DNA from: Thauera linaloolentis 47Lol = DSM 12138
Lineage (GTDB): Bacteria; Pseudomonadota; Gammaproteobacteria; Burkholderiales; Rhodocyclaceae
Reading direction: 5' to 3'
Length of the DNA stretch: 35,003 nucleotides
Assembly (NCBI RefSeq): GCF_000310205.1
Contig: NZ_AMXE01000040.1
Location: forward strand, 1 to 35,003
Shown here: one piece after another, positions 5,847-26,953 of the stretch
Numbering within the stretch: the first letter of the stretch is position 1
How the letters are laid out: every line of letters starts with the position of its first letter
Notes under the pieces: model-generated
The model's database searches: none
Told to the model about the DNA's origin: nothing
Seen by the model: only the letters and a program-made list of their open reading frames with translations
Position numbers and translations under genes: made by a program

Positions 5847-5865
5847 CAAAACAATCAAGAATGTT
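5847..5865 (-). promoter_or_regulatory. type-1 operator motif, upstream of the DUF35/Ltp operon
   Basis: On the minus strand this reads AACATTCTTGATTGTTTTG, matching the copy at 10798-10816 at 17 of 19 positions. With flanking bases it forms an imperfect palindrome, AACAA-n-CA-nnnn-TG-n-TTGTT. It lies between TetR1 and the DUF35 start codon in an AT-rich pocket of otherwise GC-rich DNA. It is probably a TetR1 operator overlapping the promoter; binding is inferred. Confidence 0.68.
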
Positions 5866-5931
5866 TGTTATGTTACACGAAAGCGCCGGCAGGTAAAGCG
5901 GCGCGATGAAGTTTCCACCCGCCTGAATGCG

Positions 5932-5953
5932 GAACGGGGCGCATGCCCCGTTC
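5932..5953 (-). terminator. perfect hairpin just after TetR1, possible terminator
   Basis: A perfect 9-bp stem (GAACGGGGC / GCCCCGTTC) with the 4-nt loop GCAT begins 20 bp downstream of the TetR1 stop. No run of T follows on the minus strand, so it is not a canonical intrinsic terminator. It may still separate TetR1 transcription from the DUF35 operon. Confidence 0.45.
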
Positions 5954-5973
5954 GTCGTCGATCCTTTCGTGTC

Positions 5974-6777
5974 TCAGCCTGCGGCCTTGCCCGCCTTGCG
6001 CGTCTTCTTCGCCGGCGCGGCGGGTTCGTCGCGGGGCGGCGACTGGCCGTCGTGCGTCGCCTGGTAGGCCTTCTCCATTTCCATCATCGCCACCGTGGCG
6101 AGCAGGTGGTGCAGCTTCTTGAGGCGGTCGTCCTTCATGTAGGGCGTGGGGTTGATCGCCACCCCCTTCAGCGAATGGAAGAACAAGTCGCGCAGCACCT
6201 GGCTCGTTTCCGGGTAGTCGGCCCAGTAGGGGAAGCGCTTCAGCAGGCTGGCGGACTTGCGCTGGTCGAGGACCTCTTCCAGCGGCTGCAGCACGCTCTG
6301 CAGGTCCTTGTCGGTGCGGGCGCCGCGCTGCAGTTCCTGCAGGGCGATGAAGGACGGACGGCCGTAGTAGTACTTCTGCAGCACCTCCAGCGTCTCCAGC
6401 ATGCTCTCGAAGGTCGGCGTGTTGCCCGGCGGCAGCTTGACGCGCCTGACCGCGTCCTCGTACTCCACCGCGCGCAGGTCGGTGATGAACTCGGCCGCGG
6501 CGTTGAACACGTCGGCGCGCGACTTGAAGTGGTGCGTCATCGCGCCGCGCGACACGCCCGCGCGCTGTGCGATCTTCTCGGTGGTGGTCTGGGTATAGCC
6601 CAGCTCGACCAGGCACTGCAGCGTCGCATCCAGGATCTGGTTGCGCGTGGCCTGGCTTTTTTCCGCCTGCCAGGTGGTGCCGCTGGCGCGCGCACTCTCG
6701 CGGCGGGCGCGTGCGATCCGGCGGACCGGCTGGGCCGGGGACGTCAACGGGGATTCGACCGCGTTCTCTTCACTCAT
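5974..6777 (-). CDS. TetR/AcrR family regulator (TetR1)
   Basis: A 267-residue TetR regulator, longer than the usual 190-220 because of a basic N-terminal extension of about 40 residues and a Lys/Ala-rich tail (PAAPAKKTRKAGKAAG). The DNA-binding helix-turn-helix is at about residues 64-86 (TTTEKIAQRAGVSRGAMTHH), followed by FKSRADV, the classic TetR pattern. The C-terminal ligand domain is helical. It sits alone between two catabolic operons on the same strand. A motif related to those in front of five other operons lies 82 bp upstream of its ATG, which suggests autoregulation and control of the whole cluster. The inducer is unknown; a CoA thioester or the hydrophobic substrate itself would be typical. 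Confidence 0.92.
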   Translation of the reverse strand: MSEENAVESPLTSPAQPVRRIARARRESARASGTTWQAEKSQATRNQILDATLQCLVELGYTQTTTEKIAQRAGVSRGAMTHHFKSRADVFNAAAEFITDLRAVEYEDAVRRVKLPPGNTPTFESMLETLEVLQKYYYGRPSFIALQELQRGARTDKDLQSVLQPLEEVLDQRKSASLLKRFPYWADYPETSQVLRDLFFHSLKGVAINPTPYMKDDRLKKLHHLLATVAMMEMEKAYQATHDGQSPPRDEPAAPAKKTRKAGKAAG

Positions 6778-6858
6778 GACTCGTTACCTTCCAGATTCGA
6801 CGCGACACATATTCCGCTCGCACGCATCGGTGCGCGCATGGTACGAGCGGGCTCGAAA

Positions 6859-6877
6859 AACATTCGCGTTCGTATGT
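6859..6877 (+). promoter_or_regulatory. type-1 operator motif, upstream of TetR1
   Basis: Reads AACATTCGCGTTCGTATGT, 14 of 19 matches to the 10798 copy and the most divergent of the six. It lies in the 108-bp gap between the TetR1 start and the stop of the preceding SDR gene, where autoregulation of TetR1 would be expected. Read on its own it would be weak; its position supports it. Confidence 0.5.
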
Positions 6878-6885
6878 GAAGGATT

Positions 6886-7683
6886 TTACGACAGTCTTAT
6901 GGAATGGCCATAGTCAACCGTGACGATGGAGCCGTTCATGAACGACGACGCCTCGCTCGCCAGCAGCAGCAGCGGCCCGTCGAGCTCCTCCAGGCGGCCG
7001 AGGCGCTTGGCCGGCAGGTTGGCGATTTCCTTCTTGCCCGCCTCCGACTCGTAGAACGGATTCGTCATCTCGCTGGGGAAATAGCCCGGCGCGATGGCAT
7101 TGACGCGGATGCCATACGGCAGCAGGTCGAGCGCCATGTAGCGCGTCATGTGGATCAGCGCCCCCTTGGTGGTGCCATAGTTGATGAAATTCGGATAGGC
7201 GAGGTGGCCGAGGATGGATGCGATGTTGATGATCGCCCCGCCCTGCTCCGCGGCGATCAGGCGCTGGGCCACGGCCTGCGTGACGTAGAAGGGCCCCGAC
7301 AGGTTGACGTCCAGCAGCGAAGTCCATTGCGCCTCGGTCATCTGGTGGAAGGCCGTCGGATCGGTCCCGCCGGCATTGTTTACCAGGATGTGCGCCGGGC
7401 TGCCGAACCTCGCCTCGACGGCATCCAGCGCGGCGCCGATGGAGGCCTTGTCGCCCACGTCCATGCGGCATGCCATGGCCTTGCCGCCCGCGGCGCGGAT
7501 CGCCTCGGCGACCGCTTCGACACGCTCGACGCGCCGCGCCGCGCACACGACCCTGGCCCCGGCGGCGGCCAGCACGTGCGCCATGCGCTCGCCCAGGCCG
7601 GAACCGGCGCCGGTGACCAGCGCGACGCGGCCTTCGAGCGAAAAACGTTTCAGGGTTTCGCCTGCTTCAATGTGGATGCTCAT
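6886..7683 (-). CDS. SDR family NAD(P)-dependent oxidoreductase
   Basis: A 265-residue classical short-chain dehydrogenase. The cofactor loop TGAGSGLG is at residues 24-31, NNAG at 102-105, N127 in DVNLSG, and the catalytic S156, Y169 and K173 (YGTTK). The C-terminal PGYFPSEMT follows the usual NAIAPG. It oxidises or reduces a hydroxyl/keto group in the cytoplasm. It is the last gene of the operon that begins with E1 alpha at 10705, following the E2 gene by 24 bp. R50/R51 after the second beta strand hint at NADP preference, but this is not decisive. The substrate is unknown. Confidence 0.92.
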   Translation of the reverse strand: MSIHIEAGETLKRFSLEGRVALVTGAGSGLGERMAHVLAAAGARVVCAARRVERVEAVAEAIRAAGGKAMACRMDVGDKASIGAALDAVEARFGSPAHILVNNAGGTDPTAFHQMTEAQWTSLLDVNLSGPFYVTQAVAQRLIAAEQGGAIINIASILGHLAYPNFINYGTTKGALIHMTRYMALDLLPYGIRVNAIAPGYFPSEMTNPFYESEAGKKEIANLPAKRLGRLEELDGPLLLLASEASSFMNGSIVTVDYGHSIRLS

Positions 7684-7707
7684 GTCGTTGTCCTTGTTGT
7701 TGCTGCT

Positions 7708-8472
7708 TCACGCCAGGGCGGCCGGGTCGGCGAGCGCATCGGCCACGAAACGGGTAAAGCGCGCAGCGTCCGCGCCGTTGATCACGCGGTGGTCGTAGCT
7801 CAGCGACAGCGGCAGCACCGGCACGCTGCGCACCTCGCCATCGACCAGGCGCAGCCTTTCGGTGGCGCGGGTGACGCCCAGGATCGCCACCTCGGGCGCG
7901 TTGATGATCGGCGTGAAGCCGGTGCCGCCCAGGTTGCCGAGCGAACTCACCGAAAAACAGCCGCCCGACATCTCGGTGATCGGCAGCCCCTTGGCACGCG
8001 CGCGCCCGGCCTTGTCGGCCAGTTCGGCGGCGATCTCGCCGATGGACTTGCGGTCGCAATCGCGGATCACCGGCACCACCAGGCCGTTGGGGGTCTCGAC
8101 CGCGACGCCGATGTGGAAATAGCGCTTCATCACCAGGCTGTTGCCGTCGGCGCCCAGCGAGGCGTTGAAGCGCGGAAAGGCCTGCAGGGCCTTGACCACC
8201 GCCTTGATGATGAAGGGCACCGGCGTCAGCTTGACGCCCAATGCCTCGCCCGCCTCGCGGCGCACCGTCTCCAGCGCGGCAACGTCGGCCTCGTCATGGT
8301 GGGTGACGTGCGGAATCTGCGCCCAGTTGCGCGCCAGGAAGGAAGCCACCAGCTTCTGGTGGCGCGGCAGCGGCACGGTGTCGACCTCGCCGAACAGGCT
8401 GAAATCGACCACCGGCATCGGCGGCAGGCTGGCGGGCCAGGCCGGCGCCTCGGTATCGGGCCGGGCGGACAT
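7708..8472 (-). CDS. 2-oxoacid dehydrogenase E2 acyltransferase, catalytic domain only
   Basis: A 254-residue protein that matches only the catalytic trimer-forming domain of dihydrolipoamide acyltransferases. Visible motifs are NASLGADGNSLVMKRYFHIG, the NLGGTGFTPIINAPEVAILG segment at about 180-199, and the active site SYDHRVINGADAARF with H228 and D235. It lacks both the lipoyl domain and the peripheral subunit-binding domain present in ordinary E2 proteins, which are usually 370-550 residues. The lipoyl domain is supplied by the adjacent upstream gene, whose TGA overlaps this ATG by one base. A GTG one codon upstream (8475) is an alternative start. It would transfer an acyl group from lipoamide to CoA. 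Confidence 0.9.
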   Translation of the reverse strand: MSARPDTEAPAWPASLPPMPVVDFSLFGEVDTVPLPRHQKLVASFLARNWAQIPHVTHHDEADVAALETVRREAGEALGVKLTPVPFIIKAVVKALQAFPRFNASLGADGNSLVMKRYFHIGVAVETPNGLVVPVIRDCDRKSIGEIAAELADKAGRARAKGLPITEMSGGCFSVSSLGNLGGTGFTPIINAPEVAILGVTRATERLRLVDGEVRSVPVLPLSLSYDHRVINGADAARFTRFVADALADPAALA

Positions 8473-8702
8473 CACACCAGCTCGCCGATGACGGTGCCGA
8501 CCTCATAGGTCTCGCCCGCGTCCTTGAGGATCTTCAGCGTGCCGTCGGCCGGCGCTTCCACCTCCTGCACCGACTTTTCGCTTTCCATCGTGTACAGCAG
8601 CTGGCCCTTGGTGACGGCGGCGCCGTCTTCCACCATCCACTCGGTGAGGATGGCTTCATTCACGGAAAAGCCCAGCTTGGGGAGGATGATTTCGGTTGCC
8701 AT
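8472..8702 (-). CDS. free-standing lipoyl-domain protein
   Basis: A 76-residue protein that is a single biotinyl/lipoyl attachment domain. It begins MATEIILPKLGFSVNEAILT, and K43 in MESEKSVQEVEA is the expected lipoylated lysine. It ends just after GTVIGELV, so nothing but the lipoyl domain is encoded. Together with the next gene it makes up a split E2: the domain would carry acyl groups between E1 and the acyltransferase. It lies 24 bp after E1 beta and overlaps the E2 start by one base. It resembles the N-terminal lipoyl domain of pyruvate or acetoin dehydrogenase E2. Confidence 0.92.
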   Translation of the reverse strand: MATEIILPKLGFSVNEAILTEWMVEDGAAVTKGQLLYTMESEKSVQEVEAPADGTLKILKDAGETYEVGTVIGELV

Positions 8703-8726
8703 GGAGAGAATTCCTTTTTCGGTTTG

Positions 8727-9722
8727 TCAGTCGAGCGTTTCGCGGATGGCCGCCAGGATGCGTTCGCGGGTCGGCACGAAGGCGGTCTCGAGCGGCTTGG
8801 AGAACGGCACCGGCGAGCGCGCCGCGCCGACACGGGCGACCGGCGCCTTCAGGGTGCCGAACAGGTCCTTGTGCAGGCGCGCGGCGATTTCCGCGCCGAC
8901 GCCGAAGTCCACCTGCGCCTCGTGCGCCACCACCACGCGGCCGGTCTTGGCCGCCGAGGCGCGCACGGTGTCGAAGTCCAGCGGCGCGATCGAGCGCAGG
9001 TCGATGACCTCGGCCGAGATGCCCTCCTTGGCCAGCCCCTTGGCCGCCGCGACCACCTCGTGCAGCGTGCGGCTGTAGCTCACCAGCGTGATGTCGCTGC
9101 CCTCCTGCACCACTTTGGCCTTGCCGAGCGGAATCCGCTCGCCGCGCACCGGCGCGTCGCCGGGCTGGAAGTACAGCGGCAGGTTCTCGATGAAGATGCA
9201 CGGGTCGTCGTCGAAGATGCACGACAGCAGCAGGCCGTAGGCATCGGCTGGCGTGGCCGGCGCCACCACCTTCAGCCCGGCGGTGTGGGCGAACCAGGCC
9301 TCCAGGTAGTCGGCGTGCTGGCCGCCGGTGCCGAAGCCGGCGCCGGTGGTGGTGCGGATAACCAGCGGCACGTGGGTCTGGCCGCCGGTCATGAAACGCA
9401 GCTTGGCGGCGTGGTTGACGATCTGGTCCATCGCCACCGTGGTGAAGTTCATCAGCATGATCTCGGCCACCGGGCGCAGGCCGGCCAGCGCCCCGCCCAC
9501 CGCCGCACCGACGATGGCCTGTTCGGCGATGGGGGTCGATTTCACCCGCCCGGTGCCGTACTTGGCCGACAGGCCGGCGGTGCATTTGAAGACGCCACCG
9601 CCCTGATCGTCGGCGATGTCCTCGCCCAGCACCACCACCGAGCGGTCGAGTTCCATGGCGTCGTGCAGCGCGAAGTTGATCGCCTGCGCGGTGTTGATCT
9701 TCTTTTGTGCGGTCGTGCTCAT
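8727..9722 (-). CDS. 2-oxoacid dehydrogenase E1 beta subunit
   Basis: A 331-residue transketolase-type beta subunit of a thiamine-diphosphate 2-oxoacid dehydrogenase. Recognisable segments are VVVLGEDIADDQGGGVFK, TPIAEQAIVGAAVGGALAG, TGAGFGTGGQHADYLEAWFAHTAGLKVVAPATPADA (given in parts) and LRSIAPLDFDTV near the C-terminus. It pairs with E1 alpha, whose stop overlaps this start by 4 bp (ATGA). The complex decarboxylates a 2-oxoacid or cleaves an acetoin-type compound and loads the acyl group on lipoate. The frame is open far upstream through codon bias; the ATG at 9722 matches the family N-terminus. The substrate (pyruvate, branched oxoacid, acetoin or a pathway-specific oxoacid) is not determinable by eye. 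Confidence 0.93.
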   Translation of the reverse strand: MSTTAQKKINTAQAINFALHDAMELDRSVVVLGEDIADDQGGGVFKCTAGLSAKYGTGRVKSTPIAEQAIVGAAVGGALAGLRPVAEIMLMNFTTVAMDQIVNHAAKLRFMTGGQTHVPLVIRTTTGAGFGTGGQHADYLEAWFAHTAGLKVVAPATPADAYGLLLSCIFDDDPCIFIENLPLYFQPGDAPVRGERIPLGKAKVVQEGSDITLVSYSRTLHEVVAAAKGLAKEGISAEVIDLRSIAPLDFDTVRASAAKTGRVVVAHEAQVDFGVGAEIAARLHKDLFGTLKAPVARVGAARSPVPFSKPLETAFVPTRERILAAIRETLD

Positions 9723-10705
9723 GCGTGGGCTCCCTCGGCGACGACGTCCTTGTCGAGTTCGGATACATCGGGGTACGGGCTGGCCAGGCCGAATTCCACC
9801 GCTTCCTCGAAGGCGGCGACGTTGGCGGCCTCGATCGCGGCCAGCTGGCTGTCGCTGGCGTGCCCCTGCCCGATCAGCCAGGCGCGCATGCGCGGCACCG
9901 GGTCGGCCGCCACCGCCTCGGCCATTTCTTCCTTGGGGATGTAGTGGCTGTCGTCGCCCAGCAGGTGGCCGCGGAAGCGGAAGGTGTTGGCCTCGATCAG
10001 CGTCGGCCCCTCGCCGGCGCGGGCGCGGGCGACCGCGTCGCGCGCCGCGCGCCACATCTGCACCGCATCGTTGCCATCGACCTCCACGCCGGGGATGCCG
10101 TAGCCGATCGCACGGTCGGCGATCGTGGCCGCGCCGGTGCCCAGGCTGTAGTGGGTATGCTCGGCATAGCGGTTGTTCTGGCAGACGAAGATGACGGGCA
10201 GCTTCCATACCGCGGCCAGGTTGAGGGCCTCGTGGAAGGCACCGATGTTGCTCGCGCCGTCGCCGAAGTTGACCACCGTGACCTGGTCCGTGCCGTTGAG
10301 CTGCGCCGCCCACGCCAGGCCGTTGGCGATCGGCAGGCCGGCGCCGACGATGCCGGTGGTCACCGGCAGGCCGGAAGCCACGTGGGTGATGTGCATCGGC
10401 CCGCCCTTGCCCTTGCAGGTGCCGGTGGCACGGCCCAGCAGCTCGGCGACGAAGGGCTTCAACGGAATGCCCTTGGCGAGCTGGTCGTGGATGCCGCGGT
10501 AGGTGGTCACCACGTAGTCGCTGGGCTTCAGGTTCACCGAGATGGCGGCCGGAATCAGTTCCTGCCCGCGCGGCGAGTAGTACGGCGACGCGATCTGGCC
10601 GGCCTTGATCAGTTCGATGAAGCGGTCGTCGGCCTGCTTGATCAGCGTCGCAATGCGATAGATCTCCAGCAGGGTTTCTTTGCTGGGCTGATGCGTGTCA
10701 CTCAT
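9719..10705 (-). CDS. 2-oxoacid dehydrogenase E1 alpha subunit
   Basis: A 328-residue thiamine-diphosphate E1 alpha subunit. The ThDP/Mg motif runs from GDG at 148-150 to NN at 177-178 (NFGDGASNIGAFHEA, then FVCQNNRYAEHTHY). The active-site region GKGGPMHITHVASGLPVTTG and the phosphorylation-loop-like FRFRGHLLGDDSHY are also present. It opens the operon E1 alpha, E1 beta, lipoyl protein, E2, SDR. The ATG has AAGGAG about 8 bp upstream. A type-1 operator motif lies about 95 bp upstream. No E3 (dihydrolipoamide dehydrogenase) is encoded in the window, so E3 must be shared from elsewhere. Confidence 0.93.
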   Translation of the reverse strand: MSDTHQPSKETLLEIYRIATLIKQADDRFIELIKAGQIASPYYSPRGQELIPAAISVNLKPSDYVVTTYRGIHDQLAKGIPLKPFVAELLGRATGTCKGKGGPMHITHVASGLPVTTGIVGAGLPIANGLAWAAQLNGTDQVTVVNFGDGASNIGAFHEALNLAAVWKLPVIFVCQNNRYAEHTHYSLGTGAATIADRAIGYGIPGVEVDGNDAVQMWRAARDAVARARAGEGPTLIEANTFRFRGHLLGDDSHYIPKEEMAEAVAADPVPRMRAWLIGQGHASDSQLAAIEAANVAAFEEAVEFGLASPYPDVSELDKDVVAEGAHA

Positions 10706-10797
10706 GCCCTACTCCTTGTCGGATGTTGGGAGCCCGGCGCAGGCATCCGGCCCTGGACCGGCACGGCGATGGCGTCCGCGCTCCCGATAATAAAAAC

Positions 10798-10816
10798 AAC
10801 ATTCTTGTTTGTTTTT
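10798..10816 (+). promoter_or_regulatory. type-1 operator motif, upstream of the E1 alpha operon
   Basis: Reads AACATTCTTGTTTGTTTTT and is used here as the reference copy of the motif. It lies in a short AT-rich island within the gap between E1 alpha and the second Rieske gene. Related copies stand in front of TetR1 and four other minus-strand operons. Probable TetR1 binding site. Confidence 0.7.
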
Positions 10817-11101: not shown

Positions 11102-12313
11102 TCAGCAGGACACGGCGGCGGCGCCCGCCTTGCCGGCGAGCGGCGCCTCCACCGGAGTGCGGCCTACGCCGCGCAGGAAAGCCTTGTGCATGTTCTGCAG
11201 GGCCGGCTCGTTACGGCCGAAAGTGCTGTATCCGAGCAAGCCGGTGTTCAAGTTCTTCATGACATTGGCGCTCACCCAGTAGTCTTCCTCGTCCACCACC
11301 TTGCAGATGAACTCGAAGTGGGCTTGCGGGTCGTTGCCGTCCCAGCCCTTCTCGCCGCCCTTGCGCACGTAGCTGCGGAAGATGGTGCGGTGCTCGCCAG
11401 GGGCGTCGCCCGGGTAGAGCTTGAAGAACTCCACCGACACCGGCGACACCAGCAGCGAGATGTTGGGATAGATGAAGTGCACGAGCTGGAAGTCATTGAA
11501 GATTTCCGGGCCCCATTCCAACCTCGGCTTGTCCCTGAGCTTGAGCATGCTCTCGTTGGGAAAGGCCAGGCGGTGGTTGCGGCCGTCCGGGCCGAAGGTG
11601 TCGAAGGCTGCGGTGTTGCCGATGGAGATGCCACCCAGCGTGTGCTTGTGCAGCGCCAGGAAGTGATAGCCCTCGCAGAAGGTGTCGAGCGCCAGCTTCC
11701 AGTTGGTCTTGATCTTCCATTCGTGGGTATTCACATGGGCGGTGCCGCCCAGATCCCAGCGCTCGAACACTGGCGCCATGTCGCCCAGGATCTCGTCGAT
11801 GCTGAACGACACGTCGGGGTGCATGCCGGCGAAGATCATGCCGTACTTCTCTTCCACCGGTAGCCTCACCAGGTCGTAGAGCGACTTCTCGATGCTGCCG
11901 AAGGTCTGCTCCTGCCACACCGCGCGCAGCTTGCCTTTCAGGTCGAAACCCCAGTTGTGGTAGGGACAGGCGAGCGACGCGGTCTTGCCGCAGCCTTCCT
12001 TCAGGCGGGCGGAACGGTGGGTACAGGCGTTCAGGAACGCATGGACCTCGCCGTCGTTGTCACGGGTGAGCAGCACCGGCGTGCCGAGGTCGTCGAAAGT
12101 GTAGTAGCTGCCTTTTCCGGGCAGGTCGCTGGAAAAGCAGATCATCTGCGGCTCATCGCGGAAGATCGTCTCCTTCTCCAGCGCGAGCAGTCCGGGGTCG
12201 GTATAGACCGAGGTCGGCTGGCGGTAGGCGGCCTCCGCGCTGTCGGTCGTGCCGGCATCGACCAATGCCAGCATGCGCTCGATGAGGCTCCTGTAGACTT
12301 CAACGTTTTCCAC
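11102..12313 (-). CDS. Rieske non-heme iron oxygenase, large subunit (second of three)
   Basis: Counting from the GTG at 12313 this is 403 residues. The Rieske ligands are C97, H99, C116 and H119 (ACTHRSARL, ACPYHNWGF). The mononuclear iron region is NWKLALDTFCEGYHFLALHKH from N204, with H217 and H222. The enzyme would hydroxylate or demethylate a pathway intermediate with electrons from an unlinked reductase. The GTG is favoured because AGGAG stands 7 bp before it. An ATG at 12349 would add MPTNTNKPRSET but has no ribosome site at a suitable distance. It follows the GMC gene in the same operon and ends before a clear terminator. The substrate is unknown. Confidence 0.92.
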   Translation of the reverse strand: MENVEVYRSLIERMLALVDAGTTDSAEAAYRQPTSVYTDPGLLALEKETIFRDEPQMICFSSDLPGKGSYYTFDDLGTPVLLTRDNDGEVHAFLNACTHRSARLKEGCGKTASLACPYHNWGFDLKGKLRAVWQEQTFGSIEKSLYDLVRLPVEEKYGMIFAGMHPDVSFSIDEILGDMAPVFERWDLGGTAHVNTHEWKIKTNWKLALDTFCEGYHFLALHKHTLGGISIGNTAAFDTFGPDGRNHRLAFPNESMLKLRDKPRLEWGPEIFNDFQLVHFIYPNISLLVSPVSVEFFKLYPGDAPGEHRTIFRSYVRKGGEKGWDGNDPQAHFEFICKVVDEEDYWVSANVMKNLNTGLLGYSTFGRNEPALQNMHKAFLRGVGRTPVEAPLAGKAGAAAVSC

Positions 12314-14088: not shown

Positions 14089-14151
14089 CTGCTTCGTCAT
14101 CCTCCTTGTCTGGCGCGGGGCGCGGTCCGTGCTGCGATCCGTTTTTATAAA

Positions 14152-19321: not shown

Positions 19322-19942
19322 TCACAGCCAGGGCAGCCCGGCGCTGGGCCGGCCGGCGACACGGTCGCGCCAGTGTGCCAGCCGGCGGTGCGCGGGCGCG
19401 AGCCCCTGCCCCACCTGGGCGCCGAACTCGACGAAGCAGAACAGCAGCAGATCGGCCACCGTCATGGCATCGCCGGCGATGTAGGGCCGATCGCCGACCT
19501 GCTCCTCGAACCAGTCCAGCCCCTGGCGCGCGCTGCGCTTGAGGTCGTCCGCGGCCTGCGGCAGGCAGACCACGCGGTCCTTGAACAGCGGCAGGCCCTC
19601 CGCCCCGCGAAAGCCCGCCGTCATCGGCTGGACCACCAGCAGGTCGACGCGCCGCCACCACATCCGCGCCGCCGCGCGCCGCGCCGGCGTATCGCCGATC
19701 AGCGCCGGGCGCGGCTGCAGTTCCTCCAGGAACTCGCAGATCGCGGCGGTCTCGGCCACATGGCTGCCATCGTCGAGTTCCAGCACCGGCGTGGTGCCGG
19801 TCGGGTTGATCGCCAGATAGGCCGGCAGCCGGTTGTCGCCGGCGATGATGTCGACGTCGCGGAGTTCGAGCGCGATGCCCTTCTCCGCGGCGAACATCTT
19901 CACCAGCCTCGGGTTCGGCCCGATCGAGTGATACAGCTTCAT
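19322..19942 (-). CDS. glutathione S-transferase family protein
   Basis: A 206-residue protein with an N-terminal thioredoxin-like GST domain (MKLYHSIGPNPRLVKMFAAE, NPTGTTPVLELDDG with the cis-proline, and ETAAICEFLEEL) and a helical C-terminal domain (GDRPYIAGDAMTVADLLLFC). The ATG at 19942 fits the family start; the frame is open further upstream only by codon bias. It sits 29 bp after an SDR and 41 bp before the SRPBCC gene. It may conjugate glutathione to, or isomerise, an electrophilic intermediate. The substrate is unknown. Confidence 0.9.
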   Translation of the reverse strand: MKLYHSIGPNPRLVKMFAAEKGIALELRDVDIIAGDNRLPAYLAINPTGTTPVLELDDGSHVAETAAICEFLEELQPRPALIGDTPARRAAARMWWRRVDLLVVQPMTAGFRGAEGLPLFKDRVVCLPQAADDLKRSARQGLDWFEEQVGDRPYIAGDAMTVADLLLFCFVEFGAQVGQGLAPAHRRLAHWRDRVAGRPSAGLPWL

Positions 19943-19971
19943 GCAAGCGCCTCCTGCGGTGGCCGCGGCGG

Positions 19972-20730
19972 TCAGAACTGGACGCGCCGGGTGTAGCCGC
20001 CGTCGATCACCAGGTTGGCGCCGGTGATGTAGGACGCGGCCGGGCTGGACAGGAAGACCATGCTGCGCGCGACGTCGTCGGGCGCGCCGAAGCGGCCCAG
20101 CGGCATCTCGGAGAGGGTCTTCTCGTACAGCTCGGGCATGGCTTCCTTGATCATCGACCAGTTGCCGCCCGGGTAGGCGATCGGGCCGGGGCAGACCATG
20201 TTCACGCGGATCTGCTTGGCGGCCCACAGCTGCGACAGCTGCTTGCCGTAGGTGATGATGGCGGCCTTGATGGCGTTGAAGGCCTGCGGGTAGATGAAGG
20301 TTTCCACCGCGGCGGTGCTCGACATCAGGATCACCGCGCCGCTGCCCGACTGCTCCAGGAAGGGTTCCAGCGTCTCGCAGCCGGTGACCGCGCCCATCAT
20401 GTCGAGGCGGAAGCTCATCTCCCAGTCCATCGTGCCCTGGGCGCCGGACGAGCTGGCGTTGTGGATGAAGACGTCGCAGCCGCCCAGGCGTTCGGCCGCC
20501 GACAGCAGCCAGGCCTTGTAGGCTTCGGCGTCGTTCATGTCGAAGGCATCGCCGAAGACCTGGCCGCCATGCTTCTTCAGCTCGGCGACGGTGGCTTCCA
20601 CGCGGGCCTTGTCGCGCGAGAAGAAGGCGATGTCGCAGCCTTCGGCGGCATAGATTTCCAACGCCGCCTTGCCGATGCCGCGGCTGCCGCCATTGATGAT
20701 GACCTTCTTGCCCTTGAGTCCGAGATCCAT
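19972..20730 (-). CDS. SDR-fold protein with Phe in place of catalytic Tyr
   Basis: A 252-residue SDR starting MDLGLKGKKVIINGGSRGIG; AAGGAG lies 7 bp before the ATG. The nucleotide loop is NGGSRGIG (residues 13-20) and the usual NNAG reads HNASS (90-94). The catalytic serine is S138, but the expected YxxxK reads FNAIK, with F151 at the 13-residue distance where Tyr should be and K155 retained. A neighbouring Y147 is off-register. The codon for 151 is TTC. The enzyme may therefore be altered in mechanism or act as a dehydratase, isomerase or structural subunit. It is the fifth gene of the operon starting at 23656. Confidence 0.88.
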   Translation of the reverse strand: MDLGLKGKKVIINGGSRGIGKAALEIYAAEGCDIAFFSRDKARVEATVAELKKHGGQVFGDAFDMNDAEAYKAWLLSAAERLGGCDVFIHNASSSGAQGTMDWEMSFRLDMMGAVTGCETLEPFLEQSGSGAVILMSSTAAVETFIYPQAFNAIKAAIITYGKQLSQLWAAKQIRVNMVCPGPIAYPGGNWSMIKEAMPELYEKTLSEMPLGRFGAPDDVARSMVFLSSPAASYITGANLVIDGGYTRRVQF

Positions 20731-20802
20731 TGTTTGCTCCTTGTTGGTGGTGTGCGCGGGTTCAGGCCCGCGCTCCATTGCGCTGCTCCAGCGCGGTTTC
20801 GT

Positions 20803-21561
20803 TCATTGGCGCGCGGCCTTGCCCCAGGCGATGCCGCGCCGCAGCAGCTCGTAGAACACCGGCAGGTCCCAGGCGCAGGTCTGCTTCTCGGGCCAGTAGT
20901 CCATCAGCGGCTGCATGTCGTAGTGGCCCCGGCAATGACCGAGCGTCAGGTACAGCACCGCGCCCTTGCCGATGGGCCGCAGGTACAGCACCGGATGTCG
21001 CGCGCGGCGCCAGGTACCGCGCACGAAGCCCGTGCCTTCGCCTTCGAACTCGGTATCGAGCAGGACCTGCAACTGCGCGTGGACGTCCGACAGATAGAGT
21101 TCGTCGGTGACGTCGAAGGGTTCGATGCCGGCCACCAGGGGATGGCCGGGATCGGCCACTTCGACGCGGTAGGCGCCGATCGGCGGGTGGGCGATGAACT
21201 GCGTGCCCAGCGTCTCCATGAAGTGCGGCGCCGACGCCGGCGAGTCGACCAGGCCGTTGTCGAGGAAGCGCAGGATCGACGCCGTGCCGTGCAGGGCATA
21301 CCAGCGCCCGCCCTCCGCCACCCATGCGCGCAGGGCCTCCTGTTCCTCCAGGCCGGGCACCACGTCGCAGGTGTAGGTGACGAGGAAATGGGCGTTGCGG
21401 ATGGCGTCGAGGTTCGAATAGTCCTCGAACACCCGCACCCGGATGCGCTCGTCCTCACCCAGCAGCTTGAGCAGTTCCAGGCGGGCGAAGTCGATGTCGT
21501 GGTACTTGCCGGAGGCCACCAGCACGCAGTCGATGCGGCCGGCCTTGTTTTCGTTCGTCAT
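20803..21561 (-). CDS. ThuA-like (class I glutamine-amidotransferase fold) protein
   Basis: A 252-residue protein matching the ThuA/trehalose-utilisation domain family. It starts MTNENKAGRIDCVLVASGKY, with FLVTYTCDVVPGLEEQEALR, EGGRWYALHGTAS (the family pattern in which His replaces the amidotransferase Cys) and VLYLTLGHCRGHYDMQPLMD near the end. ThuA-like proteins are found with sugar or ring-compound catabolism, but their reaction is mostly undefined. It lies between the VOC gene and an SDR in the same operon, 10 bp after the former. Confidence 0.82.
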   Translation of the reverse strand: MTNENKAGRIDCVLVASGKYHDIDFARLELLKLLGEDERIRVRVFEDYSNLDAIRNAHFLVTYTCDVVPGLEEQEALRAWVAEGGRWYALHGTASILRFLDNGLVDSPASAPHFMETLGTQFIAHPPIGAYRVEVADPGHPLVAGIEPFDVTDELYLSDVHAQLQVLLDTEFEGEGTGFVRGTWRRARHPVLYLRPIGKGAVLYLTLGHCRGHYDMQPLMDYWPEKQTCAWDLPVFYELLRRGIAWGKAARQ

Positions 21562-21571
21562 CGCGTCTCCC

Positions 21572-22114
21572 TCATCCGACCGCGCGGATCGGTTCGCTGC
21601 CGTCCCAGCCGCGCGCCGCCTCGCGCATCACGTCGAAGAAGGCGTAGTTATCCGGTGGGAAGCAGATCATCTCGATCAGGCCGCCGGAGCCGCCGCCGGC
21701 ATCGACGTAGATCGCCTCGCCGCCGCCGGGCAGCCAGATTTCCTGCATCACCGCGGCACCGGCCTCGGCGCAGACCGCACGCGCCCTGGCCATGTCCTCG
21801 ACGACGATGCAGACGTGGTGCAGCCCTTCGCGGCCCTCGCCGCGCCACGTGCTGTAGATCGACGGCGCATCGTTGTGCTGTTCGATGATCTCGATCTGCA
21901 GCTCGCCCCAGTAGGCGATGTAGACCGAGAAGTCGATGTCGGCCGGCCCGCCCTTGTAGCGGGCGGCGTCGACGACGATGTTGGACAGCTTGAAGAAAGG
22001 GCCGACGCCCATCGTCTCGGTCCAGTAGCGCAAGGCGCCGGGCACGTCGGCCGGCACGAAGGCAAGCTGCATGATGGTGCCGAGGCGGGAAACCAGCGTT
22101 CCGGTGTCGCTCAT
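21572..22114 (-). CDS. VOC (glyoxalase/dioxygenase superfamily) protein
   Basis: A 180-residue vicinal-oxygen-chelate protein starting MSDTGTLVSRLGTIMQLAFV. Two beta-alpha-beta modules are visible: ADVPGALRYWTETMGVGPFF with IEIIEQHNDAPS, then GLHHVCIVVEDMARARAVCA with GGGSGGLIEMICFPP. H and E in GLHHVC and GLIEMI are plausible metal ligands. Members act as epimerases, isomerases, lyases or ring-cleaving enzymes. The ATG at 22114 has GAGGA about 8 bp upstream. It follows an SDR by 11 bp within the operon. Metal and substrate are unknown. Confidence 0.87.
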   Translation of the reverse strand: MSDTGTLVSRLGTIMQLAFVPADVPGALRYWTETMGVGPFFKLSNIVVDAARYKGGPADIDFSVYIAYWGELQIEIIEQHNDAPSIYSTWRGEGREGLHHVCIVVEDMARARAVCAEAGAAVMQEIWLPGGGEAIYVDAGGGSGGLIEMICFPPDNYAFFDVMREAARGWDGSEPIRAVG

Positions 22115-22125
22115 GTCCGCGTTCC

Positions 22126-22923
22126 TCAAGCCTGGCCCGCGCCGGCCGACGCCACCGCGGCCTGGATTTCCTCGCGCGTGGGGTTGCGGCGCAGCGTCAG
22201 GCCGCCATTGACCTGCAGATTCTGGCCGGTCATGAAGCATTCGTCGCTGGCGAGGAAGACGGCGGCGGCGGCGATGTCCTCCTTGGTGCCGATGCGGCCG
22301 AGCGGGTAGCCGGACAGGAAGCTGTCGAACAGGCCCGGCACATCCTTCGCGCCAGCCGTCATCGGCGTGTCGGTGAGGCCCGGCGAGATCGAGTTGGCGC
22401 GGATGCCGCGCTCGCCGTACTCGTGCGCCACACAGCGGACCACATGGTCGGTGCCGGCCTTGGTGCCCATGTAGGCGGCGTGGTCGTTGAGCATGATGGT
22501 GGCGGTCGCCGAGCTGATCTGGATGATCGAGCCGCCGCGCGCCAGCGTGTCCACCGCCGCCTGGAAGAAGTAGAACGGCCCCTTGAACTGCAGCTCGGTG
22601 ATGCGGTCGAGCTCGTCCTCGGTGGTGTCGGTGAAGCCCTTCAGCAGCCCCCAGCCGGTGGCGTTGACCGCGATGTCGACCTGGCCGCCCCAGTTGCCGG
22701 CGAAGTCGAACAGCGCCAGCACCTCATCCTTCCTGGTGATGTCGCAGGCCTTCGCCGCGCCGCCGATGGTGCCGGCGAAGCGCTCCAGTTCGCCGATGCT
22801 CCGGCCGGCCACCACCACGCGCGCGCCTTCCCGCGCGAAGCGCTGGGCGATGACCTGCCCCATGTTGTCGCGGCCTGCCGCGCCGATGACGATTGCAACC
22901 TTGCCTTCGAGTTTCTTGCTCAT
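22126..22923 (-). CDS. SDR family oxidoreductase
   Basis: A 265-residue SDR. The cofactor loop is unusual, IGAAGRDNMG at residues 13-22 instead of TGxxxGIG, and the NNAG motif reads NATG (87-90). The catalytic residues S138, Y151 and K155 (AAYMGTK) are present, so it is probably active. R41 after the second strand suggests NADP. It starts 4 bp after the preceding SDR's stop, the tightest link in this operon. It would oxidise or reduce an alcohol/ketone of the pathway. Confidence 0.9.
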   Translation of the reverse strand: MSKKLEGKVAIVIGAAGRDNMGQVIAQRFAREGARVVVAGRSIGELERFAGTIGGAAKACDITRKDEVLALFDFAGNWGGQVDIAVNATGWGLLKGFTDTTEDELDRITELQFKGPFYFFQAAVDTLARGGSIIQISSATATIMLNDHAAYMGTKAGTDHVVRCVAHEYGERGIRANSISPGLTDTPMTAGAKDVPGLFDSFLSGYPLGRIGTKEDIAAAAVFLASDECFMTGQNLQVNGGLTLRRNPTREEIQAAVASAGAGQA

Positions 22924-22927
22924 GTTT

Positions 22928-23656
22928 TCAGGCTCCCCCGCCGATGATGGAAGATGCGTTGTCGAGAACGATGTGGGCGCCACTCATGTGGCGTGACTCA
23001 TCCGATGCCAGGAACAGCACCGTGTTGGCGACGTCGTCGGGCTGACCGACGCCGGGGCACTCCGCGCCGACCACCGCCTCCAGCAACGGAGTGGCGATCA
23101 TGCCGGGCAGGATGGCGTTGCAGCGGATGCCATCGCCCTTTTCGCGGCAATGCGCGGCGACCGTGGTGGTGATGGAAAGGATCGCGCCCTTGGCGGCGGC
23201 ATAGGTGACGACGCCGGGAAAGCCGCGCACCGCCGACAGCGACGAGATGTTGATGATCGAACCGCCGCCACCCGGCTTGCGCTTCATCGCCCCGATGCCG
23301 TACTTGCAGCCCAGGAAAGTGCCTTCGGCATGGATCGCGTTGATCAGCCGGTACTGCTCCAGCGTGGCGCTCTCGATGTCGGCCGGCACCACGATGCCGG
23401 CGTTGTTCACCAGCACGTCGAGCTTGCCGTAGCGTGCCACCGTGCGTTCGATCACCGCCTGCCAGTCCTGCTCGCTGCGCACGTCATGGCGCAGGTACTC
23501 GCCGCCGATCTCCTGCGCCACCGCGCGGGCGGCGTCCTCATCGACGTCGGTCACCATCACCCGGGCGCCCTCGCGGGCCAGCGCCCGGGCATCGGCCCGG
23601 CCCAGGCCCGACCCGCCCCCGGTGACGATCGCCACCTTTCCTATGACACGGCTCAT
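22928..23656 (-). CDS. SDR family NAD-dependent oxidoreductase
   Basis: A 242-residue classical SDR with TGGGSGLG at residues 12-19, NNAG at 84-87 and the catalytic S139, Y152 and K156 (TYAAAKGA). D37 in VTDVDE suggests NAD preference. It resembles 3alpha/20beta-hydroxysteroid and cyclohexanol dehydrogenases. It opens the eight-gene operon that runs to 17955. A type-1 operator motif lies about 75 bp upstream. Confidence 0.91.
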   Translation of the reverse strand: MSRVIGKVAIVTGGGSGLGRADARALAREGARVMVTDVDEDAARAVAQEIGGEYLRHDVRSEQDWQAVIERTVARYGKLDVLVNNAGIVVPADIESATLEQYRLINAIHAEGTFLGCKYGIGAMKRKPGGGGSIINISSLSAVRGFPGVVTYAAAKGAILSITTTVAAHCREKGDGIRCNAILPGMIATPLLEAVVGAECPGVGQPDDVANTVLFLASDESRHMSGAHIVLDNASSIIGGGA

Positions 23657-23730: not shown

Positions 23731-23749
23731 AGAAACAAACAATTCTGTT
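23731..23749 (-). promoter_or_regulatory. type-1 operator motif, upstream of the SDR operon
   Basis: On the minus strand this reads AACAGAATTGTTTGTTTCT, 15 of 19 matches to the 10798 copy, with the TTGTTTGTTT half fully kept. It lies in the 149-bp gap between the SDR start and the stop of the DUF1329 gene. Probable TetR1 site. Confidence 0.6.
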
Positions 23750-23768
23750 TTAAAAATATCACAAGGGC

Positions 23769-23798: not shown

Positions 23799-23805
23799 CG
23801 CCCCG

Positions 23806-25182
23806 TCAGCGGATGCCGCCGCCCGCCATGGTTTCGGCGTTGAAGAAGGAATCGGGCTTGGGATCGGTCACCACCCAGCCGCCCTTCATGGTCGAGTTCT
23901 GCTGCCGGGTATAGGCGCCGGTCGCGAGGTCATAGGTCACCCACTCGTCGGTCATGTGGCCGGTGTTCTCGTAGAAGGTGATCGGCAGCGTGTGGGTCAC
24001 GCGGTAGAGCCTGCCGCCCGAATCGTAGGCGTCGCCGATGCCGACGCCGGGCAGGTCTTCGTCCCAGTACATCACGCGGCGCGGGTACACATGGCGCTTG
24101 CCTTCCTTGACGGTGGCCTCCACCACCCAGACCCGGTGCAGTTCCCAGCGCACGCAGTCCGGGTTGAGCACGTTCTTCGTGCTCTCGGCCACGGTATCGG
24201 GGCAGGCGTTGGGGTCGCGCACCTTGTAGGTGTTGTACGGGATGTAGAGCTCCTTCTTGCCGAGCAGCTTGTAGTTGTAGCGATCGAGCGCACCGTAGAA
24301 CACCGCCGACTCGTCCACCACCGACGCGCCGCCGCCGGTCGGGCTGGGCGTGTCGTAGGCGATGTCCGGCGACAGCTTCACGCGGCGCTGTCCCGGCAGG
24401 TACTGCCAGGCCTTGCGTCCGATCTTCACCATGTCCACCGAGTCGTGGATGATCAGTTTCTCGCCCGCCTTGCGCGCCGGATCGGTGTATTCGATGCGCA
24501 TGCGCTCGTAGGCCTCGTCCGGCCCGATCGGCGTGCTGCGCTTCGGGTCGAAGATCGGATACTGGATGAACATGGCACCCACGCCGGTGACGGTGCGGTT
24601 GCCTTGGCTGTCGACGATCGAGCCGCCCATGCCGTCGGTCTTGAAGGCGTGCTGGTCGAACTTGAAGATGCGGTTCCACATCACCTCGCTGCCGCTCTTG
24701 GGAAACGGGAAAGGCGTGCCGGCGTAACACCCGACCAGCAGGAGCTCGTTTTCGGAGAGCTTGCATTCGCTGGCGTTCTTCACCGCGTTGTCGAGAAACA
24801 ACTGGGGATAGGACGCGGTGCGATGGCTGGGATAGACGTCGAGCCGGTAGTGCGGATATTTCTTCAGCATCTCCTTGGTTCCGTCGGCCAGCTTGTCGGC
24901 GTACTGCTCCATGTTGCTGGCGTCGATCGAGAACAAGGGTTTTTCGTCGGCGAACGGATCGGGGCGGATGCCGGGCGTCTTCGGGTCGTAGCTTGCGGGC
25001 GGCGCGACCGGGCCGGCATAGGCCGGAATGGTGCCTTCCTTGTTGCCCGCCTTCTCGGCCCCCCAGGGCAGATGGGTGGTGCCGATCGACTTCAGTTCCT
25101 CGGGCGTGGCGGCCGCCAGCAGCGGAGCGGAAAAGGCGGCAGCGAACGCGGCTGCGAGCAGCGTGTGGACATGGCGCTTCAT
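23806..25182 (-). CDS. DUF1329 family periplasmic/outer-membrane protein
   Basis: A 458-residue protein with a clear signal peptide (MKRHVHTLLAAAFAAAFSAP, cleavage near LLAAA) and the DUF1329 pattern: LTPEELK-like start, ARNKDGTIPAY-like segment (GNKEGTIPAYAG), NPFADEKPLF-type segment (RPDPFADEKPLFSIDASNM) and RRVMYWDEDLPGVGIGDAYD. DUF1329 proteins share a LolB/LolA-like lipid-binding fold by prediction and are regularly encoded next to DUF1302 proteins in loci for hydrophobic substrates. Here it directly follows the DUF1302 gene. It probably handles a hydrophobic ligand in the periplasm; the exact role is unproven. Confidence 0.9.
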   Translation of the reverse strand: MKRHVHTLLAAAFAAAFSAPLLAAATPEELKSIGTTHLPWGAEKAGNKEGTIPAYAGPVAPPASYDPKTPGIRPDPFADEKPLFSIDASNMEQYADKLADGTKEMLKKYPHYRLDVYPSHRTASYPQLFLDNAVKNASECKLSENELLLVGCYAGTPFPFPKSGSEVMWNRIFKFDQHAFKTDGMGGSIVDSQGNRTVTGVGAMFIQYPIFDPKRSTPIGPDEAYERMRIEYTDPARKAGEKLIIHDSVDMVKIGRKAWQYLPGQRRVKLSPDIAYDTPSPTGGGASVVDESAVFYGALDRYNYKLLGKKELYIPYNTYKVRDPNACPDTVAESTKNVLNPDCVRWELHRVWVVEATVKEGKRHVYPRRVMYWDEDLPGVGIGDAYDSGGRLYRVTHTLPITFYENTGHMTDEWVTYDLATGAYTRQQNSTMKGGWVVTDPKPDSFFNAETMAGGGIR

Positions 25183-25207
25183 TGGGGTGTCTCCTGCTTT
25201 TTTCTGA

Positions 25208-26848
25208 TCAGAAAGTGGTCTTGAACGTGAATGACAGCCAGCCACGGTCATTGAGCAAGGCATTGCTGCCATTGGTCGTGTTCAGTACCTTGCCCGGCAC
25301 GCCGCCGGTGTGGGTCGAGGAGTAGTCGCCGAAGTAGTCGGTGTAGGCGACATCGAATTTGTACCTGGCCTGGTAATCGAAGCTCAGGCCGATGCTCCAG
25401 CTGCCGTTGCCTTCGTTGCCCCCGCCCGGCACCGGGGAATTGCCCGACAGCCCGGTGTTGAAGCTGATCGGCATCGACACGTCGGTACTCGGCAGCAACT
25501 GGTACCACAGCGGGGTGAAGCTCATCGAGATGCCCCAGGCGTCGTCGGTGGAGCAGCCGTCGTCCTCGTCGCCGGTCGCGCAGCCCGCGTAGTCGACATG
25601 GTTGAAGTAGGCGCGCGTGCCGCGCCTGACCTTGTCGAGCCTGCTGTAGGACAGCTCGCCCATGAAGGTGGCGGAGTCGAACAGCGCGGTCTTGCCGATG
25701 TAGGCCACCATGTTGGCCAGCGCATGCCAGGTGTCGCCGATCGCCAGTTCGGGCTGGAAGCCGGTGTTCAGCGCCGTACCCTTGCGATAGACCAGTTCGG
25801 CGCCATACGAGATGCCGCCCACTTCCTTCGACAGGCTGGCGCCGAACAGCTTCACATCCTCGGCATAGGCGTTGTGCAGATGGAAGTTGACCGGGTCGAG
25901 CAGCACCGTCGGCAGCTTGTCGTCGAAGTTGCGGTAGTACAGACCCAGCGTGCCGCCCAGCCATTCGGGCGCCATGCGCACGTTTACGCCCCAGTTGCCG
26001 GCATCGCCCGGCGTCTTGTAGCGGCCGTGGTGGCGGTTGCCGTCGTACTGCAGCCCGCCGAGCGTGGTGCCCCTGGCGAACAGCGCGTCGAAGGAGCCGA
26101 GATAGGTGCCGCCATGCGGGAAACGGTAGGAATCCCATTCGAGGAAGTACTGCGCGGCCACCGACACGGTATCGGTGATCTGCGCCTGGGCGGAGATCTG
26201 GTTGAGCGGCAGGAACAGCTCCTTGGCCTCGACCCCCGGCGTCGCCTGCGCCTTGCGGAAGTCCGCCGGGCTTTGCGAATAGGACACGCCGTGGATCGGC
26301 GAGAACAGCGATTCGCCCCAGTACAGCGCATGGCGGCCGGCCTTGACGTTGATCGGCACGTTGCCGATGTCGAAACGGCCGAACACGAAGGCGTCGAGCA
26401 GTTCGCCCGAGTGCATGTAGGCCCGCTTCACGTCCCGCGTGTACCTGCCGCCCGGATAGGCGCTGGCACCGCCGTAGAGCGGATTGCCCTTGACCTTGTC
26501 GTCATAGGCGGCGTCGTACCAGGCCGCCCCCGACAGGCGGAAGCCGTACTTGTTGCGGTAGATCAGGTCCAGTTCGGTCAGCAGGTCGACGCGGTTGGTG
26601 ACCATGTCGCCCTTGCCGAACTTGTATTCGCTGCCGTGCAGGGACGGCGTATCGGCCAGCGTGCGGTCCCGCCCTTCCATCCGCCAGCCGGCGTTGTACT
26701 TGACGGTGTTGTCCCAGCGCAGCTCGACGTCGGGATTGCCCGCATCGACCCTGAACGCCATCGCCTGCCCGCTGGCAAACGCCGCGGCCAGCGCCGCGCC
26801 GACTGCCGCGGCACAGCTTGCCCCGCGGCCCGTATTTTTTCTTCTCAC
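25208..26848 (-). CDS. DUF1302 family outer-membrane protein
   Basis: A 546-residue protein with a signal peptide ending GQAMA (about residue 31), followed by FRVDAGNPDVELRWDNTVKY and many alternating aromatic beta strands. It ends in SFTFKTTF with a terminal Phe, the usual C-terminal signal of outer-membrane beta-barrels. DUF1302 proteins are predicted barrels linked to uptake of hydrophobic compounds. The start is a GTG at 26848, with AGGAGG 7 bp upstream. An ATG at 26855 is in another frame and is not used. It opens a two-gene operon with DUF1329 and is preceded by a type-1 operator. Confidence 0.9.
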   Translation of the reverse strand: MRRKNTGRGASCAAAVGAALAAAFASGQAMAFRVDAGNPDVELRWDNTVKYNAGWRMEGRDRTLADTPSLHGSEYKFGKGDMVTNRVDLLTELDLIYRNKYGFRLSGAAWYDAAYDDKVKGNPLYGGASAYPGGRYTRDVKRAYMHSGELLDAFVFGRFDIGNVPINVKAGRHALYWGESLFSPIHGVSYSQSPADFRKAQATPGVEAKELFLPLNQISAQAQITDTVSVAAQYFLEWDSYRFPHGGTYLGSFDALFARGTTLGGLQYDGNRHHGRYKTPGDAGNWGVNVRMAPEWLGGTLGLYYRNFDDKLPTVLLDPVNFHLHNAYAEDVKLFGASLSKEVGGISYGAELVYRKGTALNTGFQPELAIGDTWHALANMVAYIGKTALFDSATFMGELSYSRLDKVRRGTRAYFNHVDYAGCATGDEDDGCSTDDAWGISMSFTPLWYQLLPSTDVSMPISFNTGLSGNSPVPGGGNEGNGSWSIGLSFDYQARYKFDVAYTDYFGDYSSTHTGGVPGKVLNTTNGSNALLNDRGWLSFTFKTTF

Positions 26849-26934
26849 GGTCCATCCTCCTCCTGGTTGAAAAACTCCGGCAGGGCCCGCCGCCGAACGC
26901 TGCGGCCGGCCAGGTAGCGTCTCTTCTTATTAAA

Positions 26935-26953
26935 AACCGTCTTGTTCGTTTTT
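26935..26953 (+). promoter_or_regulatory. type-1 operator motif, upstream of DUF1302
   Basis: Reads AACCGTCTTGTTCGTTTTT, 16 of 19 matches to the 10798 copy. It lies 87 bp before the DUF1302 start in an AT-rich pocket. Probable TetR1 site controlling the envelope genes. Confidence 0.65.

What the first reader, a model, noticed from the sequence alone, without database searches (positions are those of the whole stretch)
5847..26953. A six-copy AT-rich operator motif defines a TetR1 regulon across the cluster
Six related 19-bp sites (5847, 6859, 10798, 14152, 23731, 26935) with consensus AACATTCTTGTTTGTTTTT stand in front of TetR1 and of five minus-strand operons: DUF35/Ltp, E1 alpha, GMC, the SDR operon and DUF1302. 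Counted against the 10798 copy, they match at 17, 14, 19, 17, 15 and 16 of 19 positions in that order. They are AT-rich islands in GC-rich DNA and partly palindromic. This links most of the pathway genes into one regulon and predicts the operator of an uncharacterised regulator.
Basis: partly seen in the sequence, partly recalled or inferred. Interest (0 to 1): 0.72.

Follow-up and report, generated by a model that had tools for sequence, protein, structure and literature searches.

The report
Shared repressor switch for catabolic genes
A short mirror-symmetric DNA word, repeated in front of scattered degradation genes in this bacterium and in distant relatives, is very probably the docking site of one TetR-type repressor that controls a degradation pathway as a unit.

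Summary
In detail: all six sites exist with the stated match counts. They are better described as an 18-bp palindrome, AAACNNNCNNGNNNGTTT, with AT-rich flanks. A model built only from 45 sites in genomes carrying a TetR1 homologue, nothing from the window's genome, was searched against the whole 4.2-Mb genome. At E<=10 it finds seven places: four of the six sites, plus three on two other contigs, in front of SDR/SnoaL genes, a UspHHE-DUF1302-DUF1329-MMPL series (C72) and a thiolase-HCDH-acyl-CoA dehydrogenase series (C85). The other two sites (23731, 6859) are weaker; 6859, before TetR1, has no counterpart in the six nearest loci. In 14 TetR1 genomes 38 of 71 perfect sites lie within 100 kb of TetR1, and fetched ones neighbour homologues of the same genes. 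TetR2 and TetR3 lack orthologues in 12 of 17 and 17 of 17 of these genomes. Two -10-like elements lie 6-7 bp before operators, suggesting repression. Nine literature searches gave no description (listed under Tried and rejected). A new regulon of a known kind; binding, ligand and substrate are untested.

The parts
5849..5866 (-). Operator 1, 0 mismatches to the palindrome, 16 bp before the DUF35 start
   Evidence: (E 0.03, own genome); a site at the same place in 14 of 15 loci where DUF35 follows TetR1
6858..6875 (-). Operator 2 (weak, uncertain), 1 mismatch, 80 bp before TetR1, 7 bp after a -10-like element
   Evidence: no counterpart in the six Zoogloea-type loci
10797..10814 (-). Operator 3, 1 mismatch, before E1 alpha, 6 bp after -10-like TATACT
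   Evidence: (E 1.5); a site in 15 of 15 loci with a readable E1 alpha upstream region
14151..14168 (-). Operator 4, 1 mismatch, before GMC oxidoreductase
   Evidence: (E 2.4)
23733..23750 (-). Operator 5 (weaker), 1 mismatch, before the SDR operon
   Evidence: (6th of 37); below threshold
26934..26951 (-). Operator 6, 0 mismatches, in the divergent region between DUF1302 (-) and the FAD_binding_2 gene (+)
   Evidence: (E 1.6e-4)
5974..6777 (-). TetR1, proposed repressor of the sites
   Evidence: Pfam TetR_N; helix-turn-helix region nearly invariant in 17 aligned proteins; AlphaFold model matching TetR proteins
5392..5832 (-). DUF35 / ChsH2 OB-fold protein, first gene after operator 1
4223..5374 (-). 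Thiolase (Ltp-like)
2788..4182 (-). Rieske oxygenase alpha RO1
1759..2787 (-). Zinc-type oxidoreductase
551..1758 (-). Acyl-CoA dehydrogenase, resembling PimC below its cut-off; 5' end estimated
6886..7683 (-). SDR1
7708..8475 (-). E2 acyltransferase
8727..9770 (-). E1 beta (transketolase-like); 5' end estimated
9719..10705 (-). E1 alpha, first gene after operator 3; the same-strand series ends in TetR1
11102..12292 (-). Rieske oxygenase RO2, after GMC; 5' end estimated
12472..14100 (-). GMC oxidoreductase, start placed after AAGGAGG
19322..23656 (-). SDR operon: SDR4, SDR3, glyoxalase-like, ThuA, SDR2, GST
23806..26848 (-). DUF1302 and DUF1329 genes
27270..29039 (+). FAD_binding_2 dehydrogenase, divergent from DUF1302; may share operator 6
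   Evidence: homologue in L082 has a perfect site 51 bp upstream

Best explanation
The sites are operators of TetR1. A TetR1 dimer binds the 18-bp palindrome AAACNNNCNNGNNNGTTT, which lies at or just after the transcription start, and blocks RNA polymerase. It thereby keeps the E1 alpha-E1 beta-E2-SDR1-TetR1, DUF35-thiolase-Rieske-acyl-CoA dehydrogenase, GMC-Rieske, SDR and DUF1302-DUF1329 operons off. On other contigs it does the same for SDR/SnoaL genes, a DUF1302-DUF1329-MMPL transport series and a beta-oxidation series. A pathway intermediate (most likely an acyl-CoA or the lipophilic substrate) releases it. Shown here: the motif, its specificity in the own genome, its conservation with TetR1, its place in front of homologous genes. 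Inferred: that TetR1 is the protein that binds, operon boundaries, repression as the sign, the ligand, and the substrate class.
For: Hold-out test: a model from 45 relatives' sites finds 7 places in the own genome at E<=10, all in front of catabolic genes (the tool scored the best 150 of 686 first-look candidates). The 8 best of 37 near-matches in the genome by the 18-bp matrix all lie in these gene sets. A matrix from 30 Pseudomonas and Halopseudomonas sites alone ranks the six window sites on top, apart from one shifted overlap of the 10797 site. In 14 TetR1 genomes with complete listings 38 of 71 perfect palindromes lie within 100 kb of TetR1 against 2.7 expected. The 26 stretches fetched around such sites in relatives each hold a homologue of a C40, C72 or C85 gene. 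A site scoring 19 or more lies before E1 alpha in 15 of 15 and before DUF35 in 14 of 15 loci; 8 and 6 of these are perfect palindromes, the kind that also trained the matrix, the others are not. The segment SRGAMTHHFK is invariant in the 17 aligned proteins (L009 and L013 were left out). TetR2 and TetR3 have no orthologue in 12 and 17 of the 17 relatives.
Against: No binding data. The relatives were chosen because they carry TetR1, so a linked factor is not fully excluded. Sites 23731 and 6859 miss the genome-wide threshold. Bare pattern counts separate poorly: 88 perfect matches against 45 for the reversed control in the 17 TetR1 genomes, with the control higher in two of them, and 30 against 21 in 16 family genomes without TetR1. 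Five of those 16 have model matches at E<=10, best 0.056, at most two places each. In the two Pseudoduganella genomes no perfect site near TetR1 was counted (0 of 8, 0 of 1), and locus L022 has none at up to 1 mismatch. TetR1 relatives exist within one genome (L020 and L022; a 53% match in L074) and might share the site. The scan found no promoter-like match at three of the five operators in the stretch scanned, and -10-like evidence in AT-rich flanks is weak (34 sites favour the 5' side, 11 the 3' side, of 63 related sites).
Confidence: 0.82

Rival explanations
1. Another TetR-type protein of the same gene set (TetR2, 14779-15363, or TetR3, C72:5612-6352) or a TetR1 paralogue binds the motif, and TetR1 is only a neighbour.
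For: TetR3 lies beside the C72:6430 site. TetR2 orthologues at 57-61% are in 5 of 17 relatives, all Zoogloea-type, and on the contigs with sites.
Against: TetR2 has no such match in the Pseudomonas, Halopseudomonas, Pseudoduganella and Vitreoscilla-labelled genomes that keep the motif (one 28% match in G160). TetR3 has only 23-33% matches in the relatives; none was on a TetR1 contig where that contig's number was known, and five of their loci that I compared, those of G161 and G157 among them, share no 60-base piece with the TetR1 loci. TetR1 sits between the two most conserved sites.
Confidence: 0.1
2. TetR1 acts as an activator, or as a dual regulator, from these sites.
For: Some TetR proteins activate (recalled).
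Against: At E1 alpha and TetR1 the operator begins 6-7 bp after the -10-like elements found by the scan, and it ends 12-17 bp before the aligned DUF35 start in relatives; such positions fit blocking.
Confidence: 0.06
3. AT-rich promoter islands resemble one another by composition; there is no shared operator.
For: Sites are AT-rich islands in 66% GC DNA; the bare pattern is only about 1.4 times as frequent as its reversed control in the own genome (37 against 26).
Against: The matrix separates the sites genome-wide, and the palindrome with C and G in the middle recurs at the same places in Beta- and Gammaproteobacteria.
Confidence: 0.02

Closest known systems
FadP and PsrA regulons (TetR repressors of fatty-acid degradation in Proteobacteria; PMC5343134, passages seen)
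   Same: TetR-family regulators that control several dispersed degradation operons; predicted by comparative genomics
   Different: The paper lists PsrA in 76 and FadP in 25 of its genomes; TetR1 was found in 1 of 150 sampled family genomes and in 18 loci of the genome collection by a search that finds close relatives only. PA3006 (PsrA, recalled; 2fbq) matches TetR1 only over residues 43-130. The PsrA operator spacing that I recall (GAAAC-N4-GTTTC) differs. FadP was not compared.
KstR (TetR repressor of cholesterol catabolism, PDB 5fmp)
   Same: TetR fold; one repressor for a large catabolic gene set (its gene content is recalled)
   Different: Actinobacterial; 17% identity in a general fold match at rank 36; its recalled operator is shorter
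AmeABCD monoterpene exporter of Castellaniella defragrans (PMC6394551, passages seen)
   Same: DUF1302, DUF1329 and RND genes together in the metabolism of a lipophilic substrate, like the C72 series
   Different: The passages seen describe no operator and no TetR regulator

Membership tests
TetR family of transcriptional regulators | N-terminal TetR_N helix-turn-helix domain | tested here: met
   PF00440, 1.6e-14; fold matches to TetR proteins
TetR family of transcriptional regulators | Palindromic operator near the regulator's own gene | tested here: met
   Sites between TetR1 and DUF35 in 14 of 15 loci (in L012 the two genes lie 8.5 kb apart); the site directly before TetR1 is weak
TetR family of transcriptional regulators | Dimer binds DNA and is released by a ligand | not testable with these tools
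   needs binding experiments
PsrA regulon | Orthologue of PsrA (PA3006, identity recalled) | tested here: not met
   phmmer match to 2fbq only 6.9e-5 over residues 43-130; 16% in the fold match
FadP regulon | Orthologue of FadP of Burkholderia, Ralstonia and Comamonadaceae | not tested
   no FadP sequence was compared; the sparse finds of TetR1 speak mildly against it
NCBIfam named TetR regulators (AcrR, MtrR, BetI, FadR and others) | Score above the curated cut-off | tested here: not met
   15 families matched TetR1, each below its cut-off and within residues 37-111

The most novel reading that the evidence does not exclude
TetR1 with its operator is a portable regulatory module: one repressor and one DNA word hold together a horizontally spread catabolic island of roughly 100 kb, whose pieces may sit at separate places, across Beta- and Gammaproteobacteria. 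The operator can then be used to find further genes of an unassigned pathway for a lipophilic, possibly terpenoid- or steroid-like, substrate.
Probability: 0.5. Interest if true: 0.55.

Novelty: new member of a known kind. Interest (0 to 1): 0.42.

Why it matters
It gives an uncharacterised regulator a concrete, testable operator, and it groups otherwise scattered genes (DUF1302/DUF1329/MMPL, Rieske oxygenases, a DUF35-thiolase pair, a beta-oxidation series) into one likely pathway. That narrows the search for the substrate and gives a possible sensor part. The patchy finds of TetR1 suggest that the regulon moves between lineages.

Tried and rejected
Rejected: chance or composition; TetR2 and TetR3 as the common factor. 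The first impression that a -10 element follows the operator on the gene side was dropped: flanks are AT-rich on both sides, and over 63 oriented sites the better -10-like hexamer is more often on the 5' side (34 against 11, 18 ties; the sites are related, so this is not a test). Considered and left low: C6:56865 (perfect core but GC-rich filling; no homologue of the gene sets in the 4 kb around it) and C144:530 (before a peptidase M24 gene; 11.8 in the 18-bp matrix, 21.7 with flanks in a frame 4 bases off). Literature: nine searches listed no paper that I could recognise as describing this regulator or operator; I saw the listings, and passages of PMC6394551, PMC7012976 and PMC5343134. The pathway's substrate was not identified.

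Limits: the pattern AAACNNNCNNGNNNGTTT was written after seeing the window and the 18 loci, so sites within 10 kb of TetR1 are not independent of it; of the 38 sites near TetR1, 27 lie more than 10 kb away by my count of the listed positions. In one search I left out G157, G159 and G161 (their listings were cut), counted G162 and G163 as zero because the contig number of TetR1 was not known, and typed approximate TetR1 positions; the probability printed there is nominal. The logo counts both strands, so its symmetry outside the ten chosen bases is by construction. For one search I fetched 26 stretches of relatives, mostly sites on TetR1 contigs plus four elsewhere, and did not fetch the other scattered hits. 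The 16 control genomes are a hand-picked part of the 149 without a match. The genome searches with the model score the best 150 first-look candidates only. One search finds close relatives of TetR1 only.

Full report
WHAT WAS CHECKED. The six 19-mers are in the sequence at the stated places, with the stated numbers of matches. The consensus at up to 3 mismatches gives 4 matches in the window, none in shuffles, and the same 4 in the whole 4.2-Mb genome of 220 contigs, in which the window is contig C40. A degenerate pattern that covers all six has 7 matches in the genome, six of them in the window and one on contig C72; since it was drawn from the six, only the low number elsewhere is informative.

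THE OPERATOR. A scan of the genome collection with TetR1, which finds close relatives only, returned 18 loci: Zoogloea, Pseudomonas and Halopseudomonas, Pseudoduganella, and genomes labelled Proteobacteria bacterium and Vitreoscilla. Zoogloea and Pseudoduganella are Betaproteobacteria, Pseudomonas Gammaproteobacteria. Most share the gene order E1 alpha, E1 beta, E2, SDR1, TetR1, DUF35, thiolase, Rieske oxygenase, (oxidoreductase), acyl-CoA dehydrogenase; L020 and L021 differ, and L022 lacks DUF35 and thiolase beside TetR1. The common element is a palindrome, AAACNNNCNNGNNNGTTT. At up to 1 mismatch the window contains exactly the six sites; 17 of the 18 loci have at least two matches and L022 has none. 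From 45 distinct perfect sites in relatives the logo is wwAAAACSAWCnnGWTSGTTTTww; the ten specified bases are fixed by selection and the symmetry of the rest by counting both strands.

HOLD-OUT TEST ON THE OWN GENOME. A sequence-only model of the 45 sites finds seven places in the own genome at E<=10 (13 rows, both strands; 150 of 686 first-look candidates scored): C72:6430, C40:26934, C72:10602, C40:5849, C85:10701, C40:10797 and C40:14151. All lie in front of catabolic genes. C72 carries Rieske oxygenases, SDRs, SnoaL proteins, TetR3, and a UspHHE-DUF1302-DUF1329-MMPL series; C85 a thiolase-HCDH-acyl-CoA dehydrogenase series. The bare palindrome at up to 1 mismatch has 37 places in the genome against 26 for the reversed control. 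Of these 37, the eight best by the 18-bp matrix are five window sites, two C72 sites and the C85 site; 6858 is tenth. A matrix from 30 Pseudomonas and Halopseudomonas sites alone ranks the six window sites above everything else in the window except a shifted overlap of the 10797 site.

CONSERVATION. With the matrix of the 45 sites, the best place upstream of E1 alpha scores 19.7 or more in 15 of 15 loci where it could be read, and upstream of DUF35 19 or more in 14 of 15 loci where DUF35 follows TetR1 (L023 scores 11.0; in L020 and L021 DUF35 lies about 9 kb or less away and has none). Of these, 8 E1 alpha and 6 DUF35 sites are perfect, the kind that trained the matrix. Directly upstream of TetR1 only 3 of 18 loci reach 17, and the six Zoogloea-type loci score 9.5 or less. 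TetR1 may instead be controlled as the last gene of the E1 alpha series (inferred). In 17 genomes with TetR1 the perfect palindrome occurs 1-9 times, 88 in all against 45 for the reversed control. Numbers alone therefore say little; position does. In the 14 genomes with complete listings 38 of 71 lie within 100 kb of TetR1 against 2.7 expected. The 26 stretches fetched hold homologues of DUF1302, DUF1329, the C85 thiolase series, GMC, FAD_binding_2, UspHHE, oxidoreductase and MMPL genes next to the sites. In 16 family genomes without a detected TetR1 there are 0-6 perfect matches, 30 in all against 21 for the control, and five have model matches at E<=10, best 0.056, at most two places each.

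WHICH REGULATOR. TetR1 is a TetR protein with a low-confidence N-terminus (residues 1-32); the helix-turn-helix region is nearly invariant in 17 aligned proteins. TetR2 has orthologues in 5 of 17 relatives, all Zoogloea-type. TetR3 has only distant matches, 23-33%. The motif is present in genomes without either. TetR1 is therefore the best candidate, though the genomes were picked for having it.

MECHANISM. In 19.9 kb the consensus scan finds two sigma-70-like promoters, no more than shuffles give (mean 1.6), but both are directly in front of operators: TTGTCA-17-TATACT ends 6 bp before the 10797 operator and TGGCCA-16-TAAAAT ends 7 bp before the 6858 operator; the other three operators in that stretch have none. 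TATACT is found 6 bp before the operator in Zoogloea-type E1 alpha promoters, and TAGAAT at the same distance in four Pseudomonas or Halopseudomonas ones. An operator over the start site points to repression by blocking. The coincidence at 6858 is the best argument for that weak site.

SPREAD. TetR1 was found in 1 of 150 sampled genomes of the host's family but in two proteobacterial classes, so the set is patchy and probably transferred; no tree was made. In relatives, sites of C72- and C85-type operons lie on the TetR1 contig (for example between 337 and 435 kb of one contig in G150), so C40, C72 and C85 may be pieces of one island; this is not shown.

PATHWAY. Domain content suggests degradation of a lipophilic compound: DUF35-thiolase pair, Rieske oxygenases, FAD_binding_2 dehydrogenase, SDRs and DUF1302-DUF1329-MMPL. 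The last set resembles the AmeABCD exporter of monoterpene metabolism (PMC6394551, passages). The substrate remains unassigned.

VERDICT. The finding is right in substance, needs the corrections above, and is a new regulon of a familiar kind.

Noticed in passing
window 32476-33999 (+): Reverse transcriptase matching the defence family Drt8 (PADLOC 1.4e-149) in the low-GC right end of the contig.
   Followed up: partly
window 15767-16540 (+): LuxR-type regulator with an autoinducer-binding domain inside the catabolic cluster; possibly a LuxR solo.
   Followed up: no
window 14201-14248: Perfect 20-pair hairpin followed by a T-rich tail on the minus strand, after the hemerythrin gene and before the GMC operator: a terminator-like element.
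   Followed up: no
L042 (G000:C72) 5391: Weak operator-like palindrome (15.9) upstream of the leftward SnoaL-Rieske genes on C72.
   Followed up: partly
window 27147-27164: Weak palindromic match (10.4) upstream of the FAD_binding_2 gene.
   Followed up: no
L074 26-328: A partial TetR1-like match (53%) near the UspHHE gene in Zoogloea oleivorans, suggesting paralogues that may share the operator.
   Followed up: no
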